Shown: in pieces, positions 870 through 43,922 of the stretch
Position numbering within the stretch: the stretch's first letter is position 1
How the letters are laid out: each line of letters starts with the position of its first letter
Origin: Leptolyngbyaceae cyanobacterium JSC-12
GTDB lineage: Bacteria; Cyanobacteriota; Cyanobacteriia; Leptolyngbyales; Leptolyngbyaceae
Direction of reading: 5' to 3'
Assembly (NCBI GenBank): GCA_000309945.1
Contig: CM001633.1
Span: forward strand, 71,264-135,263
DNA length: 64,000 nt
Notes under the pieces: generated by a model
The model's database searches: none
Told to the model about the DNA's origin: nothing
What the model saw: the letters and a program-made list of their open reading frames with translations, nothing else
Made by a program: the position numbers and the translations under genes

Positions 870-954
870 ATCCAGCAACAGTTCAGACATTGTCCCAAGA
901 AGAAATTTAAACGTAATTTTTAGTTTGCTGACAACAGTGCTATTCTTAGACCAG

Positions 955-1116
955 AACTATCGGTTCTGATGGGGAGCAGCCATCAGACGCAAGGGGGAAA
1001 GTGCAGTGTGAATCTGCCGCTGTCCCGCAGCTGTGAAGAGAGGCGCAACTCTCTGAGTCAGAATGCCCGCCGAGTCATAAACCCATTACATAAACATCTG
1101 CGAGGTACGGATGATG
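955..1116 (+). promoter_or_regulatory. Cobalamin riboswitch 1
   Basis: Aptamer hallmarks are in order. ATCGG (959-963) opens P1 opposite CCGAG (1070-1074). A 7-bp hairpin CTGATGG/CCATCAG follows (966-972 with 980-986). Then come GGGGGAAAGTGCAG, CTGTCCCGCAGCTGTGA and a B12 box AGTCAGAATGCCCGCCGA (1056-1073). The hairpin covaries with the second copy at 6.1 kb, which has CTAGTGG/CCACTAG at the same place. A 22-nt segment at 1095-1116 is identical to 6241-6262 and may be the regulatory hairpin. The riboswitch sits in front of a metE remnant, which fits the known B12 repression of B12-independent methionine synthase. Confidence 0.93.
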
Positions 1117-5935: not shown

Positions 5936-6104
5936 CGTTAATCTCTAGGACACAAATCTCTAGAACATGAAGGAGATAGAGCCATCTTAGCAACGACTCA
6001 CACAGAACCAAGCGACCAGAGAACGATTTCCAGAACTGGGGTTTCCCTTCTTAACATTTTATTACTATTGCCTATAACCTATTTCAAACCATGCTTCAAT
6101 ACTA

Positions 6105-6262
6105 AAAATCGGTTCTAGTGGGAATCAGCCACTAGACGCAAGGGGGAAAGTCCGGTGCAAATCCGGCGCTGTCCCGCAACTGTAATGAAACATTGGTTTC
6201 TAAGTCAGGATGCCCGCCGATATTTGTTGACTGTTCACAGCATCTGCGAGGTACGGATGATG
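6105..6262 (+). promoter_or_regulatory. Cobalamin riboswitch 2
   Basis: P1 is ATCGG (6108-6112) with CCGAT (6217-6221). The covarying hairpin is CTAGTGG/CCACTAG (6115-6121 with 6129-6135). The conserved core GGGGGAAAGTCCGG, CTGTCCCGCAACTGTAA and the B12 box AGTCAGGATGCCCGCCGA (6203-6220) follow. The 22-nt block at 6241-6262 is identical to the one behind riboswitch 1. It lies directly before a decayed TonB-receptor gene, so it once probably controlled a corrinoid receptor. It may still affect the intact receptor beyond. Confidence 0.93.
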
Positions 6263-36885: not shown

Positions 36886-37383
36886 CTATACAAGTAATGA
36901 TGCATTGTAGTGATGGATGAAATACCAGATCGCACCAATGTGATTTTCCAAGGATTTTGAGAAGGACAAGGTTTTTCGCACTAGCCGCGACACTCGTTGC
37001 CTTAAGGTATTGTTGAATCGCTCAATGTAACTTGTCTTGCCTGGACTCATCGACAATTTGCAGATCAAGCTCAACCCACGTATTGTTGAATCGCTCAATG
37101 TAACTTGTCTTGCCTGTCTCCTTGCCGACGGCTCGATGCCGCTTGCTCGGTAGCACTGCCCCATACGCTGCCCAGAAATCAGTGTAAGCAATCGCACATT
37201 GACGATAAATTGGAGGCAATGAGTCCCACAATTTGCGGGCAGCCGCTTCATCGCGGGCGCCAATGTAAACGCCAACAATTTCACGAGTGTTAGCATCAAG
37301 CGCCAACCAAACCCACTGCTTGTTCCCCTTGTTGTCCACGAATGACCCTAACTCATCACATTGAATCGTTAGCCTCCCCTTTT
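36886..37383 (-). pseudogene. insB: IS1 InsB, frameshifted by an internal duplication
   Basis: The catalytic frame shows CDELGSF, AYTDFWAAY and ERFNNTLRQR, consistent with the IS1 DDE set, and ends HHYNASLLV. It is broken near 37.04-37.12 kb by a 73-bp insertion that contains a second copy of a 37-bp sequence (37007-37043 and 37080-37116). Because 73 is not a multiple of three, the last ~45 residues fall out of frame. This copy should not make full transposase. Confidence 0.8.
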
Positions 37384-37668
37384 TTTGGGTGTCACCTGCA
37401 CTTGGCGGGGCACCTTGGCATATTTCTCATTGACGTAGGTTTGCAGCCATTGCTCAGAAACCTGGGCAGCACGGGCAATGCCCGCTAGAGAGATGCGTTC
37501 CAAAAGCAATCGGTCAATCAACTGGCGAGTGAGTTGGTCAATCACTTTTTTGGTCGGTTGTTCGATGAACTGTCGTCCGCAGTCGTGGCATTTGAATCGT
37601 TGTTTACCGTTGTGAATGCGACCGTTCTTGACCGTTTTAGCGGAAGCACAAATGGGGCAGGCAGGCAT
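37369..37668 (-). CDS. insA: IS1 InsA
   Basis: This is a 99-residue protein with an N-terminal zinc-finger pattern CPICAS...CHDCGRQF and an HTH region (LAGIARAAQVSEQWLQ), as in IS1 InsA. At its end, a run of seven A (complement of T7 at 37380-37386) in CCCAAAAAAAGGGG is a -1 slippery site. Shifting there gives KGRLTIQCDELGSFVDNKG and continues into InsB, the normal IS1 way of making the InsAB transposase. Confidence 0.85.
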   Translation of the reverse strand: MPACPICASAKTVKNGRIHNGKQRFKCHDCGRQFIEQPTKKVIDQLTRQLIDRLLLERISLAGIARAAQVSEQWLQTYVNEKYAKVPRQVQVTPKKRGG

Positions 37669-38498: not shown

Positions 38499-38587
38499 CT
38501 TTTCACACCTGTGGTAGAGGAGTAATCTAAAGTTACTCGATAGGATTAGCATATACAGTTTAAGCTAACTTAGAAAAGGAGACTGTT

Positions 38588-38770
38588 ATGAGCGCAGAAG
38601 ATAGAGCAAAAGCAACCGCAAAAAATATCGAAGGAAAAGTTCAAGAATTTGTGGGTAACGTCACTGGTGACCCTGAGCAAAAAGCTGAAGGGAAAGCCAA
38701 GCAGGTGGAAGCCAACGTTCGCCATTTAGTTGAGAACATTAAGGATGACGTAAAGCGGGCGATCGACTAG
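38588..38770 (+). CDS. CsbD-family stress-response protein
   Basis: This is a 60-residue hydrophilic helical protein, with the AEDRAKATAKNIEGKVQEF start and the GDPEQKAEGKAKQ core of the CsbD family. AAAGGAGA precedes the ATG. CsbD proteins are general stress-induced; the biochemical role is unknown. A terminator follows. Confidence 0.88.
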   Translation: MSAEDRAKATAKNIEGKVQEFVGNVTGDPEQKAEGKAKQVEANVRHLVENIKDDVKRAID

Positions 38771-38831
38771 TCTAAATTAATCACTAAAGACTAGTAGGTG
38801 CCGGTCTCATGCCGATTCTGGCTAAAGACGA

Positions 38832-38857
38832 GGGCAATCTTTATGGTTGCCCTTTTG
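38832..38857 (+). terminator. Rho-independent terminator after csbD
   Basis: GGGCAA (38832-38837) pairs with TTGCCC (38847-38852) around a nine-base loop, followed by TTTT. Confidence 0.75.
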
Positions 38858-38987
38858 ATTGGCTTTATCTATCCAGGTTCAAAAACAGTTGCGCTTTAGC
38901 TCTCTAGATTAGTTATTTTTGTAGTGAAAATATCTGACTGATTGAGTCAATCATTTATCATCATAAGGTTGATAAATAGCATTCTGC

Positions 38988-40130
38988 TTAATATATTTCC
39001 AGGTCTAGATTTTCAGCAGTTTTGAATTGGCGAATATCAGAATGCTCTTCCAAATAATCCAGCAGGTTTAGGAAATCAGCTTTGGGTGCACATTTACCAC
39101 CGATGGTTGTAAAAGCAAGCTCTGGTTTCTCACCACTGTAAATATGATACCCCCAATAAAAAAGCTGCTTACTATTGCGAATTGCTGCATCCTCTGGGTC
39201 GATAAACTGAAATCGAGGTTCTTGTTGTGAGAGCTTTGAAAAATATTTTTTGTATTGTTCTTTGATAACCTGGGCTTTATGAGCTTCGTCTTTGAAGTAG
39301 TTGTTGATCAGCACAAAAATATACGCATTCTTATTCACACTGCGAATTTCTCTGAGGGTATTTTTAATCACGAAACCATTTTTGTTTAGACCCAATGGGT
39401 TGAGTGTGGTTGGAATGATACAGTAAGAGAATTTTTCGACAATGTGAACGGGGTTTTCTTCAAAGACAGGCGAGCAATCACATACGACAAGCTTGATTCC
39501 GGGTGGCGGTTGTGTGTCATCCCATTCATCAATGCGAAAAACTTTGAGGCTACGAGGTGGCTCCTTTCCAACGCCTGGTACCAGTACCCCTCCATCCAAC
39601 AAAGTGGTGAGGTTTTTTTGTGGGTCAAGATCAATGATGGCAACATTGTAACCGGATAGCGCGATCGCCCCTGCTAGATGAGCGCTGATCGTAGTTTTAC
39701 CCACTCCCCCTTTACAAGTAAACACACCAATGTATACTAGCTCGTTGGATTCTGGGACGGGTTGCTTATCGTTAAATCGGATCCAGTGAACGGTACCTTC
39801 TTTAACCACAGCCAACCGCACCCGGCTACTGTTGACATTCGAGAAATAAGTGAGGGCATTGTGGGTAAAGCCACTCAGAGAAACGAGTAAGCCTCTAGTG
39901 AATCGCCGAGAAATCGGAAGATCGAAAAAGTCGAGAAATCGCTCAATTTGAGGAACTTTGACGGGTGATTTGTGGCTTTTAACCTGAACTGCAATCACTT
40001 CTTTGGCTTTGGTTGCTTCAAAGTCGTAGCCAGCCGTGTTAGGTGGTGGCAGCGTAATGGTCCAACCAGCTTGCTCCAATTGTTTGGCAACCTGTTCTTC
40101 GGCACCCCTTAATTGTCCAACGCTCACCAT
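38988..40130 (-). CDS. Mrr-like restriction-endonuclease domain fused to ParA/MinD-type ATPase
   Basis: This is a 380-residue fusion. Residues about 1-115 look like an Mrr-type PD-(D/E)xK nuclease: helix LRGAEEQVAKQLEQAGW, catalytic-type D36 in GYDFEAT, and the QxK pair Q49/K51 in VIAVQVKSH. From about 132 a ParA-like deviant Walker A is clear (FTCKGGVGKTT, 138-147; IIDLDPQKN, 166-173). A Walker B-like VVCDCSP and ParA-type PTTLNPLGL follow. No parB, parS or methyltransferase gene is adjacent, and it is transcribed alone. The fold calls are by motif. Function is not known to me; defence, plasmid control or DNA repair are possible. Confidence 0.72.
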   Translation of the reverse strand: MVSVGQLRGAEEQVAKQLEQAGWTITLPPPNTAGYDFEATKAKEVIAVQVKSHKSPVKVPQIERFLDFFDLPISRRFTRGLLVSLSGFTHNALTYFSNVNSSRVRLAVVKEGTVHWIRFNDKQPVPESNELVYIGVFTCKGGVGKTTISAHLAGAIALSGYNVAIIDLDPQKNLTTLLDGGVLVPGVGKEPPRSLKVFRIDEWDDTQPPPGIKLVVCDCSPVFEENPVHIVEKFSYCIIPTTLNPLGLNKNGFVIKNTLREIRSVNKNAYIFVLINNYFKDEAHKAQVIKEQYKKYFSKLSQQEPRFQFIDPEDAAIRNSKQLFYWGYHIYSGEKPELAFTTIGGKCAPKADFLNLLDYLEEHSDIRQFKTAENLDLEIY

Positions 40131-40466
40131 GTGCTTACACGCTTAAATCTGGATACAGGCGGGTTCATCAAACGCTTGGTTGCCCTGTTCGCAGCCATTT
40201 GGCAACATCTGCCTCGACGAGGAAGTTTGGTTCAAAGATACGACCTTATTACACTAAAAAATTCGATTTGATGCATTGCTGTTACTTTTCTTGATGTTCG
40301 TAATATGGGACTCTCATCTATTCTTCATGCAAATCTAAGATATCGGCGTATAAATGTTAGCGGTTCTGCGTAGATGCAGCATCTTAAACAGGGTAGACGG
40401 TACAATTCTGTACTACTGACTTGATGTTCTTCCGTAACCTTTGTTCACTCATATTCACTCCCACAA
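40131..40466. other. Intergenic region between divergent nuclease-ParA and recJ genes
   Basis: 336 bases with no ORF, RNA gene or repeat that I can support. It presumably contains both promoters. Confidence 0.4.
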
Positions 40467-42539
40467 TTGCACTTGCCTGTGACTACTTCACTGTCTATCT
40501 CGTCTGAAGCCGCTTTACGCGCAAAATTGCCAGATCAACGCTGGCAGATTGCCCCAGCCGAAACCCAGTTAGCAGAGGAAATTGCTCAAACAGCGGGAGT
40601 ATCCCCCTTACTGGCGCAGGTGTTGATCAATCGCAATTTAACTGAAAAGGAACAGGTTCAGGCGTTTCTGAATCCCGACTCCCAGTTTTTACCCTCTCCC
40701 CTGGCAGAATTTCCTGATTTGCCGTTGAGCCTGGAACTGTTGATTAATGCCATCAATACTCGTCAGAAAATTGCGATTTGTGGAGACTATGACGCGGATG
40801 GCATGACCAGTACTGCCTTATTAATCCGGGCGTTGCGATCGCTGGGGGCACAAGTTGATTACGCTATTCCCAGCCGCATGAGCGAGGGGTATGGCATCAA
40901 TCAGCGGATTGTAGAAGAGTTTTATGACGAGGGAGTGGGGCTAATTCTCACAGTGGATAATGGCATTGCTGCCCATGCACCTATCGCTCGTGCGCGTGAA
41001 CTGGGCATTGCTGTGATTATTACCGATCATCATGACTTGCCGCCAAGCCTGCCAGAAGCTAACGCTATTCTCAATCCTAAGTTGCTGGAACCTACTTCGC
41101 CCTATCGCGGTTTAGCGGGGGTGGGGGTGGCATATGTGCTGGCGCGATCGCTAGCGCAGAGCATGGGCAATCCTTACGATTTGGGAAACTCTCTGCTGGA
41201 ACTGTTTACGCTAGGGACCATTGCCGACCTTGCCGCATTGACAGGTGTGAATCGCCGTTGGGTGAAACAGGGTTTGCAGTCTCTCGCAAAATCGCAGCTA
41301 GCAGGGGTACAGGCATTGAGCCAGGTTGCTGGATTGGGAAACGAAAAGAACCTCAAGCCGGAAGCGATAGGGTTTCGACTAGGTCCTCGGATTAACGCCG
41401 TGGGTCGCCTGGCAGATCCGCAAATTGTGATTGAACTGCTGACAACAGATGATCCCAGCACAGCACTGGAACGGGCGATGCAGTGCGAACAAATTAATCA
41501 GCAACGGCAAAAGCTGTGTGAGCAAATTGAGCAAGAAGCGATCGCCCTATGTGAAGCGGGGCACCTGGATGTTGAAAGTAATCGCGTGTTGCTGTTAACC
41601 CAGGCGGGCTGGCATCATGGCGTAATTGGGATCGTTGCCTCGCGGTTGGTGGAACGTTACGGAGTGCCCGTTTTTATCAGCACCTACGAAGACGACGAAC
41701 AGCAACTGATTCGCGGATCAGCACGCAGCATTCCTGAATTTGATGTGTTTGCGGCGTTGGAATTTTGCAAAGACCTACTAGAAAAGCATGGCGGACATCG
41801 AGCGGCGGGCGGCTTTTCCTTCAAAACGGAGAACCTGGAAGCCTTGCGGTCACGCCTGCGAATCTTTGCTCACCAATGCCTGGAACTCGATCATCTCAAG
41901 CCCTTAGTTCGGATTGATGCTCAGGCTCCCCTGGAAGCTGTGGATTTTGCTCTCTTCAATGAAATGGATGCCTTGCAGCCCTGCGGCGTTGAGAATCCTG
42001 AACCTGTGTTCTGGTCATCCCATGTGCGAATACATGAGCAACGGCTATTTGGCAAAGGGCATCTCAAACTCACCATCAGCCAGGATACTGGCAACGGGAT
42101 GTTACCCCGCAAGTTTCAGGCGATTGCCTGGCGCTGGGGTTGTTACTACCCGATGCCAACTTTTTTGGATATTGCTTACCGGTTGCGGCGATCGGACTGG
42201 AACGGCGAGGTAGCGCTGGAGTTAGAATTGGTAGGTGCACGCCCATCCACAATTCCCACTCAAACCGCTAACTTTGTTTATGACGATCGCGCCTATTCCT
42301 GTCATCTGTTGGAACTGGAAACTGGTAAGCAATTGCGCATTCGCAACAGTCAAGGCAAATTACTGGTCTTACAGCAAGGACAGCGAGTAGGGATTCTCTG
42401 CAAAAGTCCAACCGATGTTATCGAGGTTGATGTTTGCCAGTCTTACTATTTCAATTTGATCAAGGCGGCATTAGCAGCCTTAGAGGTTGAATCCTTGCAA
42501 TGCAACTCCACCCCTGAAAGTACGATGGATGCTGTATGA
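40467..42539 (+). CDS. recJ: Single-stranded-DNA exonuclease RecJ
   Basis: This is a ~690-residue DHH-family exonuclease. Motifs are AICGDYDADGMTSTALL (metal-binding Asp), LTVDNGIAA and IITDHHDLP (DHH). DHHA1-type GGHRAAGGFSF and an OB-like C-terminal part follow, with a cyanobacterial extension. The start is uncertain: TTG 40467 or a nearby TTG/GTG is needed, because no ATG precedes the conserved region. Its TGA overlaps the ATG of the hydrolase gene (ATGA). Confidence 0.92.
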   Translation: MHLPVTTSLSISSEAALRAKLPDQRWQIAPAETQLAEEIAQTAGVSPLLAQVLINRNLTEKEQVQAFLNPDSQFLPSPLAEFPDLPLSLELLINAINTRQKIAICGDYDADGMTSTALLIRALRSLGAQVDYAIPSRMSEGYGINQRIVEEFYDEGVGLILTVDNGIAAHAPIARARELGIAVIITDHHDLPPSLPEANAILNPKLLEPTSPYRGLAGVGVAYVLARSLAQSMGNPYDLGNSLLELFTLGTIADLAALTGVNRRWVKQGLQSLAKSQLAGVQALSQVAGLGNEKNLKPEAIGFRLGPRINAVGRLADPQIVIELLTTDDPSTALERAMQCEQINQQRQKLCEQIEQEAIALCEAGHLDVESNRVLLLTQAGWHHGVIGIVASRLVERYGVPVFISTYEDDEQQLIRGSARSIPEFDVFAALEFCKDLLEKHGGHRAAGGFSFKTENLEALRSRLRIFAHQCLELDHLKPLVRIDAQAPLEAVDFALFNEMDALQPCGVENPEPVFWSSHVRIHEQRLFGKGHLKLTISQDTGNGMLPRKFQAIAWRWGCYYPMPTFLDIAYRLRRSDWNGEVALELELVGARPSTIPTQTANFVYDDRAYSCHLLELETGKQLRIRNSQGKLLVLQQGQRVGILCKSPTDVIEVDVCQSYYFNLIKAALAALEVESLQCNSTPESTMDAV

Positions 42540-43110
42540 ATACTATGCTGGGGCGACTGTTGTTCGGACGATCGCTACTTACTCTGCTGGTTCTGATCCT
42601 ATTTTCCTACCTGGTATTAAATCTCTTGGCTCTGCTTGTGGCAGATCGGATTATTTTCCAGCCTCCGCCTGCCACCTATCAGGATACGCCTGATATCATT
42701 AAACTCACCACACGTAACCACACACAAATCTCAGCCGTATACTTGCCTAACCCTACTGCAACCTACACGATACTATTTAGTCATGGGAACGGCAGCGATT
42801 TAGGTATGAGCCGCCCAACGCTTGAACTCATTCAAGCCATTGGATTTACAGTCTTCGCTTACGACTATCAGGGCTATGGCACCAGCCAGGGTACACCCTC
42901 TGAACACAATACTTATCAGGATATTGACGCGGCTTACACCTATCTTACAACCATGTTACAAACCCCTGCCCATCGCATTGTTCTGTATGGGTTTTCAGTC
43001 GGAAGTGGTCCCAGTATTGAGTTAGCAATGCGGCGACAAGTCGCAGGCATTATCCTAGAAGGGGCATTTACCAGTGCATTTCGGGTTGCGACCTATTTCC
43101 CGATTTTAAT

Positions 43111-43637
43111 CTCTATGGGTCAATTCCCCGCTGCTCTGCAGCGTAAAATGCAGGGATGAGCGAGTACATCCACAAAAGTCATAACGTTACGGTTTTGCTA
43201 TACCACCTTGTGTTTCCAGCAAAGTATCGGCGGGCTGTGTTTGATGAACAGGTCGATGAAGTTTTGCGAGAAGTTTGCCTGGAGATTGAGAAACGCTACG
43301 AGATTAAATTTATAGAAATCGGTGTAGACAAAGACCATGTGCACTTTTTAGTCCAATCGGTGCCGACATACAGCGTGACCAAATTGGTCAAAATGATCAA
43401 GAGTTTGACCGCAAGGGAAGTGTTTCGGCGTTGTCCTCAGGTGAAGCAAAAGCTATGGGGTGGAGAGTTTTGGAGTGATGGCTATTTTGCAAGTACAGTT
43501 GGGAAACACGGGGATGAAGGGATGATTGCGAACTACGTCAAAAATCAGGGTAACGAATATCTCAAGCTACACCGAGATGAGCAGCTTACTCTTTTTTGAT
43601 TCTGATACCCCGTCTGCTTGCAGCGGGGTAGTTCATT
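43111..43637 (+). mobile_element. IS200/IS605-type element, copy 1 (tnpA only)
   Basis: This 527-bp element lies directly 3' of TTTAAT. Ends carry subterminal hairpins: CGCTGC/GCAGCG at left (about 43129-43143) and TACCCCG...CGGGGTA with inner CTGC/GCAG at right (about 43607-43630). No target duplication is present, as expected for HUH transposition. It appears base-for-base the same as copy 2 at 54029-54555. Boundaries are uncertain by one base. Confidence 0.92.
43156..43599 (+). CDS. tnpA: IS200/IS605 transposase TnpA, copy 1
   Basis: This is a 147-residue Y1 HUH transposase. The HUH motif is HVH in VDKDHVHFLVQ, and the catalytic Tyr is probably in GMIANYVKNQG. LVFPAKYRRAVF is typical of the family. 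Its ATG overlaps the TGA that ends the interrupted host frame (GGATGAGC) and has no good ribosome site, so translation may rely on coupling with the host gene. Confidence 0.93.
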   Translation: MSEYIHKSHNVTVLLYHLVFPAKYRRAVFDEQVDEVLREVCLEIEKRYEIKFIEIGVDKDHVHFLVQSVPTYSVTKLVKMIKSLTAREVFRRCPQVKQKLWGGEFWSDGYFASTVGKHGDEGMIANYVKNQGNEYLKLHRDEQLTLF

Positions 43638-43922
43638 GTTTGATCGCTTCAACAATATCAGCAAAATCAAATCAATTAATTGCCCCATTTTGTTTATTCA
43701 TGGAACTGCCGACAGCATTATCCCTTTGCATCAGGGGAAGACATTGTATGAGCATGCCAATCAACCCAAGTGGTTTATAGAAATTCCAGGTGCCGATCAC
43801 AATAATTTGATTGCGATCGCTGGAAGCCGCTATGAGCAAGCTCTAAAGGAGTTTGCTCTGAAGATAGAGTCGTAATTTCATGGAGACCAATCTTGCAATA
43901 GAGCCGATCATCCAGTTCACTC

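What the first reader, a model, noticed from the sequence alone, without database searches (positions are those of the whole stretch)
38988..40130. Mrr-like nuclease domain fused to a ParA-type ATPase in a stand-alone gene
A PD-(D/E)xK-type domain with D36 and Q49-x-K51 is joined to a complete deviant-Walker ParA ATPase (KGGVGKTT). ParA proteins normally position plasmids or chromosomes with ParB, and Mrr domains cut modified DNA. Having both in one chain, with no parB or methylase nearby, suggests an ATP-switched nuclease that could recognise segregating or foreign DNA. This is the best candidate here for an undescribed defence or plasmid-control system. The motifs are seen; the function is inference.
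Basis: partly seen in the sequence, partly recalled or inferred. Interest (0 to 1): 0.75.

Follow-up and report, generated by a model that had tools for sequence, protein, structure and literature searches.

The report
Nuclease-fold arm on partition-type ATPase
A cyanobacterial gene joins a DNA-cutting type of fold to the ATP-driven switch that normally helps partition DNA; it is a real, conserved and apparently undescribed protein family, but its surroundings do not look like a defence or plasmid system and part of the family has lost the cutting residues.

Summary
The fusion is real. Window 38988-40130, minus strand, encodes 380 aa: residues 11-106 match Pfam Mrr_cat (E 2e-10), 137-292 a ParA-type ATPase (E 3e-16). 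The N-domain model resembles AF1548, XisH and several endonucleases, the rest ParF/Soj. The gene and 34 distinct relatives have both parts. The family is mainly cyanobacterial: 25 of 388 genomes of the class, 17 of 42 of the order; no full-length match turned up in plasmids, phages or sampled viral contigs.

Defence and plasmid control are not supported by context. No neighbour is shared by all 22 loci compared; most flanking genes scanned are ordinary, and positions are shared within clades. The window's genome has no ParB_N match.

ATPase residues are invariant (36 of 36). Nuclease residues D36/K51 are both intact in 25 of 35 rows: 19 of 20 in clades A and C (window gene included), 6 of 15 in clade B, where the domain stays under purifying selection. 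Most likely: an ATP-gated DNA-bound dimer with a Mrr-fold arm, probably an active nuclease here, a binding module elsewhere.

The parts
38988..40130 (-). Coding sequence of the 380-aa Mrr-fold/ParA fusion protein (stop codon included)
   Evidence: conserved full length in 34 other distinct rows
39813..40100 (-). Mrr_cat / PD-(D/E)xK-fold domain, residues 11-106
   Evidence: Pfam PF04471 E 2.1e-10; model pLDDT 83.9 for residues 1-125; Z 11.7 to AF1548, 9.8 to XisH
40023..40025 (-). Codon of D36, presumed metal ligand
   Evidence: D in 29 of 35 rows; N 3, T 2, G 1
39978..39986 (-). Codons of Q49-x-K51, presumed active-site QxK motif
   Evidence: Q49 in 35 of 35 rows; K51 in 28 of 35, R in 7
39027..39740 (-). 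ParA-type deviant Walker ATPase domain, residues 131-368
   Evidence: Pfam CbiA E 2.6e-16 over 137-292; ParF Z 18.4 over model 131-368
39690..39713 (-). Deviant Walker A motif KGGVGKTT, residues 140-147
   Evidence: K140, G141, G144, K145, T146, T147 each 36 of 36

Best explanation
A chromosomal, ParB-independent ParA-type switch whose N-terminal arm is a Mrr-like PD-(D/E)xK domain. ATP binding closes the ParA halves into a sandwich dimer that holds DNA non-specifically, and the two Mrr arms are thereby brought onto the DNA together. In clades A (this gene) and C the arms keep a full D...QxK site and probably cut or nick DNA in a metal-dependent way only in the ATP-bound, DNA-bound state; hydrolysis resets the switch. 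In clade B the arm has kept its fold but repeatedly lost catalytic residues, and probably acts as a DNA- or partner-recognition module. Shown here by computation: fusion, predicted folds, invariant ATPase residues, intact site in this gene, erosion in clade B, no partner gene shared by all loci compared, positions shared within clades. Inferred: dimerisation, DNA binding, cleavage, and the biological process served (upkeep or positioning of the cell's own DNA rather than a mobile defence island).
For: Both domains by profile and fold. K140, K145, D167, D169 and D218 invariant in 36 of 36 rows; that these are the residues a ParA ATP sandwich needs is recalled. D36 and K51 both intact in 19 of 20 clade A+C rows against 6 of 15 in clade B, Fisher p 0.0006, not corrected for descent. 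N-domain under purifying selection: window/L018 dN 0.038, dS 1.30; clade B pair L032/L144, both R51, dN 0.007, dS 0.97. No neighbour common to the 22 loci compared, so it acts alone or with a distant partner. No ParB_N in the window's genome, while the same search rings in 10 of 14 control genomes.
Against: No biochemical data. Loss of D36 and/or K51 in 10 of 35 rows argues that cutting is not the family's core function. Three genomes (G399, G409, G410) have as their only detected copy a protein lacking both residues, and G400 has one D36N and one K51R copy. On the other side, an aspartate two residues earlier (D34) in L136, L140 and L141 could rescue the site, so 'lost' is not certain. Nothing shows dimerisation or DNA binding; the models are of monomers.
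Confidence: 0.4

Rival explanations
1. The Mrr fold is a non-catalytic DNA- or partner-binding arm in the whole family, taking the place of the N-terminal helix-turn-helix of type Ia ParA proteins; the protein is a positioning or patterning ATPase (chromosome copies, a cargo or a complex) and does not cut DNA.
For: ATPase residues invariant in 36 of 36 rows while nuclease residues are lost in 10 of 35; at least 6 changes between intact and lost on the tree; N-domain still under purifying selection when K51 is R. Control: of 25 loci with other cyanobacterial Mrr_cat proteins, the 23 in which both positions can be read keep the D and the K (19, 4 more, where two have E or D in place of Q); the other 2 do not cover the site. 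Several genomes have no intact copy.
Against: 19 of 20 members of clades A and C, the window gene among them, keep both residues; such retention is not expected of a purely structural arm.
Confidence: 0.3
2. A stand-alone type IV-like restriction or anti-phage protein: the ATPase senses or tracks foreign DNA and the Mrr domain destroys it.
For: Mrr_cat domains are recalled as typical of modification-dependent restriction. Patchy presence (25 of 388 genomes of the class; 17 of 42 of the order). Weak PADLOC hits: PDC-M28B 4.2e-6 over residues 116-169, PDC-S02 2e-4. Some neighbours could be defence genes: a caspase-domain gene at L020 and a Uma2 'putative restriction endonuclease' at L040; among 142 flanking ORFs PADLOC models matched include mad3 (4 ORFs), AriA (3), PD-T4-6 (up to 3), mad6 and MkoA (2 each). 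PMC7159879 (passages) names both Mrr-like and MinD/ParA-like domains among effectors of conflict systems of multicellular prokaryotes, the ParA-like ones predicted inactive there.
Against: Most of the flanking genes scanned are ordinary. No PADLOC family matches more than 4 of 142 flanking ORFs, and the one mad3 match looked at is a plain ABC ATPase. Positions are shared within clades and, for clade B, across genera, which is unlike mobile defence genes. Catalytic residues erode in one clade. No background scan of random loci was made, so enrichment is not measured.
Confidence: 0.2
3. A plasmid or chromosome partition ParA that works with a ParB and parS, the Mrr domain being incidental.
For: Best fold matches are partition ATPases ParF and Soj; best NCBIfam profile is ParA_partition, 57.7 bits; partial plasmid hits are mostly RepA partition proteins among the rows listed.
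Against: Below NCBIfam's cut-off of 180; no ParB_N match in the genome; no parS-like repeat array in the two short flanks scanned; chromosomal locus; 0 of 72,556 plasmid records with a match covering 80% of the query.
Confidence: 0.04

Closest known systems
Mrr_cat (PF04471) nucleases and type IV restriction enzymes (Mrr, MspJI, AspBHI)
   Same: PD-(D/E)xK fold with D...QxK in this protein; profile E 2.1e-10; Z 7.9 to AspBHI, 7.5 to MspJI
   Different: N-terminal and fused to ParA instead of a DNA-reader domain (the reader domain is recalled); active site eroded in 10 of 35 rows
ParA partition ATPases (ParF/TP228 ParA, Soj)
   Same: Deviant Walker A KGGVGKTT and Walker B; Z 17-18 over the ATPase domain
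   Different: No ParB_N match in the genome; N-terminal nuclease-fold arm; own C-terminal motif with invariant Y325, W326, G327, H329
Type Ia ParA / RepA of repABC plasmids (N-terminal DNA-binding arm plus ParA)
   Same: Arm-plus-ParA layout; RepA proteins lead the plasmid hits
   Different: The arm is of Mrr fold; the type Ia arm is recalled to be helix-turn-helix; no full-length similarity
XisH (fdxN element excision controlling factor, cyanobacteria)
   Same: Second-best structural match of the N-domain, Z 9.8, 106 aligned, 2.8 A
   Different: Solved chain of 128 residues; no ATPase part
Mrr fused to NACHT ATPase (mentioned in PMC1913061, passages read)
   Same: Mrr nuclease domain joined to a P-loop ATPase
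   Different: NACHT is recalled as a STAND-type ATPase, not ParA

Membership tests
Mrr / PD-(D/E)xK nuclease | Profile match above curated cut-off | tested here: met
   41.2 bits against 21
Mrr / PD-(D/E)xK nuclease | PD-(D/E)xK fold | tested here: met
   Model of residues 1-125: Z 11.7 to AF1548 and 7.5-8.8 to several endonucleases; also about 7.4 to non-nuclease Rpb5-type subunits
Mrr / PD-(D/E)xK nuclease | Catalytic D...QxK residues in this protein | tested here: met
   D36, Q49, K51
Mrr / PD-(D/E)xK nuclease | Catalytic residues kept across the family | tested here: not met
   Both intact in 25 of 35 rows; clade B 6 of 15
Mrr / PD-(D/E)xK nuclease | DNA cleavage | not testable with these tools
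   needs biochemistry
ParA-type ATPase | Deviant Walker A with signature lysine, Walker B, ParA fold | tested here: met
   K140, K145, D169, D218 in 36 of 36 rows; ParF Z 18.4
ParABS partition system | ParB partner | tested here: not met
   No PF02195 match in the genome; small partners without ParB_N, such as ParG, were not searched for genome-wide
ParABS partition system | Centromere-like repeats at the locus | tested here: not met
   Only short two-copy repeats in 40100-40480 and 38540-39000; no other stretch scanned
Anti-phage defence system | Location among defence genes | tested here: inconclusive
   Most flanking genes scanned are ordinary and no PADLOC family matches more than 4 of 142 flanking ORFs, but a caspase-like and a Uma2 neighbour exist and no background was measured
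Anti-phage defence system | Protection against phage or plasmid | not testable with these tools
   needs an experiment

The most novel reading that the evidence does not exclude
A ParB-free DNA-patterning ATPase: ParA's ATP switch is coupled in one chain to a restriction-fold DNA arm, so that a single protein both reads DNA and patterns itself on it, and in cyanobacteria without ParB it takes over part of chromosome upkeep. In clades A and C it would also cut, making a nuclease gated by the partition switch. In the order, 6 of 7 genomes without a ParB_N match over the cut-off carry the fusion against 11 of 35 with one (p 0.012, found after the fact, not corrected for descent or plasmid content; three of the seven genomes are listed as only 69-87% complete).
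Probability: 0.12. Interest if true: 0.75.

Novelty: new variant of a known kind. Interest (0 to 1): 0.48.

Why it matters
ParA ATPases and restriction-fold nucleases are each well known, but a conserved one-chain union of the two, without ParB or any neighbour shared by all loci, did not turn up in the paper searches, and no NCBIfam model shown reaches its cut-off (25 of 31 matches shown). If the ATP switch gates cutting, it would be a new way to control a nuclease; if the arm is only for binding, clade B would be a clear case of a nuclease turning into a binding module while its ATPase stays intact.

Tried and rejected
Plasmid partition: rejected on no ParB_N, no repeat array in the scanned flanks, chromosomal locus, no plasmid match covering 80%. 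Phage origin: no match in 50,697 phage records. In the profile listing (cut at 90 rows) the nine viral loci shown match the ParA part only, at 1e-15 or weaker, against 2e-151 or better for the full-length family rows. One viral contig (L075) matched residues 9-175 at 28% and was not followed.

Conserved partner gene: none in all 22 loci (ORFs picked greedily; L018, L024 and L025 are short loci). Clade B shares an ABC-2 permease gene in 10 of its 14 loci apart from the outlier L042; clade A shares recJ in 4 of 12; clade C has a metallophosphatase gene in the fetched region in 6 of 8, in L043 several kb away. These look like clade-wise shared positions rather than partners, though a link to the ABC-2 transporter in clade B is not excluded.

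Idea that clade A needs a clade B or C copy in the same genome: seemed so in the first 386 genomes, rejected when G426, G427 and G428 showed a single match each. Wider spread: besides the two seed genomes, 0 of 296 and 0 of 287 others in the phyla of the two non-cyanobacterial hits at 1e-25; those seeds are short MAG contigs and may be misbinned. The full-length fold search listed ParA-type (SIMIBI ATPase) matches only, so the N-domain was predicted and searched alone. By sequence profile the N-domain is only weakly like solved chains (AF1548 0.003, Holliday junction resolvase 0.015, LlaBIII 0.024).

Papers: PMC7159879, PMC11090510 and PMC1913061, passages only; all others in search listings only; 10.1093/nar/gks382 is not held. 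Searches found no paper; one search returned 576, nearly all off topic in the 20 listed. Rows dropped before counts: L157 (C-terminal part only; its match has an in-frame TGA) was left out of the 35 and of the tree but is in the 36; fragments L026, L142, L154, L158 and L159 were not counted. Flanking ORFs: 142 of 155 were scanned; 13 were left out as repeats of a shared position or to stay within the size limit. dN/dS pairs are often saturated in dS. The promoter and terminator scan was close to shuffled sequence.

Full report
Observation. The ORF at 38988-40130 is on the minus strand and encodes 380 aa. Pfam finds Mrr_cat at residues 11-106 (E 2.1e-10) and CbiA/ParA at 137-292 (E 2.6e-16), both above curated cut-offs. 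NCBIfam shows only sub-threshold ATPase models, the best ParA_partition at 57.7 bits against 180.

Folds. AlphaFold2 with the 22-row family alignment A1 gave pLDDT 77.7 and pTM 0.75; residues 1-125 alone with the 32-row alignment A3 gave 83.9 and 0.77. The ATPase half matches ParF (Z 18.4, 199 aligned, 3.0 A) and Soj (about 17). The N-domain matches AF1548 (Z 11.7), XisH (9.8), PaqCI (8.8), the P. abyssi repair endonuclease (8.5), LlaBIII (8.3), EndoMS (8.1), AspBHI (7.9) and MspJI (7.5). The lower of these lie in the range the tool calls common, and non-nuclease RNA-polymerase subunits of the Rpb5 kind appear at about 7.4; many of the better rows are restriction or repair enzymes (that they share the PD-(D/E)xK fold is recalled).

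Family and distribution. With the single sequence, 11 of 386 genomes drawn from the phylum have a relative at 1e-20. With the alignment profile it is 25 of 388 in the class and 17 of 42 in the order, one genome in each count (G398) having fragments only. One genus (g158) has it in 7 of 7 genomes and another (g153) in 0 of 8. A scan of genome contigs added seven cyanobacterial records (one a fragment) and one Verrucomicrobiota and one Desulfobacteraceae MAG contig, besides five ParA-only matches. Apart from those two seeds, 0 of 296 and 0 of 287 other genomes of their phyla have it at 1e-25. No plasmid record has a match covering 80% of the query (101 of 72,556 match in part); no phage record matches.

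Active sites. Among 36 distinct rows (35 with the N-domain, the window gene included) the ATPase residues K140, G141, G144, K145, T146, T147, D167, D169 and D218 are invariant, 36 of 36. In the N-domain Q49 is invariant (35 of 35), D36 is D in 29 of 35 (N 3, T 2, G 1), and K51 is K in 28 of 35 (R in 7); both are intact in 25 of 35. A tree built from the ATPase part alone gives three groups: clade A (12 rows, including this gene), clade C (8 rows) and clade B (15 rows, including the window genome's own 47% paralogue and the long-branch outlier L042). Support is mixed: 12 of 32 inner branches are starred, 11 are open, and C branches from within A. Intact sites: 19 of 20 in A+C and 6 of 15 in B, with at least 6 changes between intact and lost. 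As a control, 25 of the 30 loci hold other Mrr_cat proteins. In the 23 where both positions can be read, D and K are kept: 19 (read from the alignment, since the automatic pattern picked wrong stretches in several rows, all with QxK) and 4 (two with QxK, one ExK, one DxK). L177 and L188 do not cover the site. The loci listed favour strong matches.

Selection. In the window gene and its closest relative (L018) the N-domain shows dN 0.038 and dS 1.30. In clade B, L032 and L144, both with R51, show dN 0.007 and dS 0.97 in the N-domain. So the domain is kept even where the site looks damaged. Over the whole family the N-domain is less conserved than the ATPase (mean pairwise identity 41% against 60%). 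Caveat: in L136, L140 and L141 an aspartate sits two residues earlier, so a migrated ligand is possible.

Context. Only the gene itself is shared by all 22 loci compared. Clade A members WIN, L018, L019 and L131 lie beside recJ. In clade B, 10 of 14 loci (L042 aside) lie beside the same ABC-2 permease gene, in at least four genera. In clade C, 6 of 8 loci have a metallophosphatase gene within the fetched region. Twenty flanking proteins were scanned one by one: among them are magnesium chelatase, a tRNA nucleotidyltransferase/poly(A) polymerase, RNase R, a cobalamin adenosyltransferase, oxidoreductases and transporter parts, but also a caspase-domain gene (L020) and a Uma2 gene, Pfam's 'putative restriction endonuclease' (L040). 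PADLOC on 142 of 155 flanking ORFs matched 68 families (25 shown), none in more than 4 ORFs; they include mad3, AriA, PD-T4-6, mad6 and MkoA, and the one mad3 match looked at is a plain ABC ATPase. No background was measured, so a weak defence link is not excluded. The scanned flanks of the window gene have no repeat array.

ParB. The window's genome (5.53 Mb, one contig, listed as 100% complete) has no ParB_N match, while the same search rings in 10 of 14 control genomes. In the order, 7 of 42 genomes have no match above the cut-off; 6 of these 7 carry the fusion, against 11 of the other 35 (Fisher p 0.012). This was noticed after the fact and is confounded by descent, plasmid content and three incomplete genomes among the seven.

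Reading. A ParA sandwich dimer on DNA carrying two restriction-fold arms is the simplest mechanism for such a chain. For this gene, with its complete site, ATP-gated cutting is the best single guess (0.4); a non-catalytic arm in a positioning ATPase comes next (0.3); defence is possible, with little contextual support (0.2). No description of this family turned up in the literature searches; the library lacks most subscription journals, so 'undescribed' is provisional.

Noticed in passing
window 42536-43875, + strand: An IS200-like Y1 transposase gene (43156-43599) lies between the two parts of what looks like one alpha/beta hydrolase gene (42536-43159 and 43618-43875); the first part and the transposase are Pfam-confirmed, the second part is judged by eye.
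   Followed up: partly
window 36886-37668, - strand: IS1-type element pieces (InsA zinc ribbon and IS1 DDE transposase) in several frames, apparently a degraded or frameshifted copy.
   Followed up: partly
window 944-1088 and 6093-6235, + strand: Two cobalamin riboswitches about 5 kb apart (54 and 70 bits).
   Followed up: no
window 38588-38770, + strand: A 60-aa ORF that looks CsbD-like by eye lies between the fusion gene and the histidine phosphatase gene; not tested against a library.
   Followed up: no
L032 7423-11304 (own genome paralogue locus): The clade B paralogue is encoded antisense between two ABC-2 permease genes (PF06182), with an ABC ATPase gene beside them; both permeases also flank the gene in L144 and L145, and the second permease lies beside L157.
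   Followed up: partly
L136, L140, L141 residues equivalent to 34-51: Members lacking both D36 and K51 carry an aspartate two residues earlier (D34), a possible migrated ligand.
   Followed up: no
L075 (viral contig): A viral contig matches residues 9-175, i.e. parts of both domains, at 28% identity; it may be a remote arm-plus-ParA protein.
   Followed up: no
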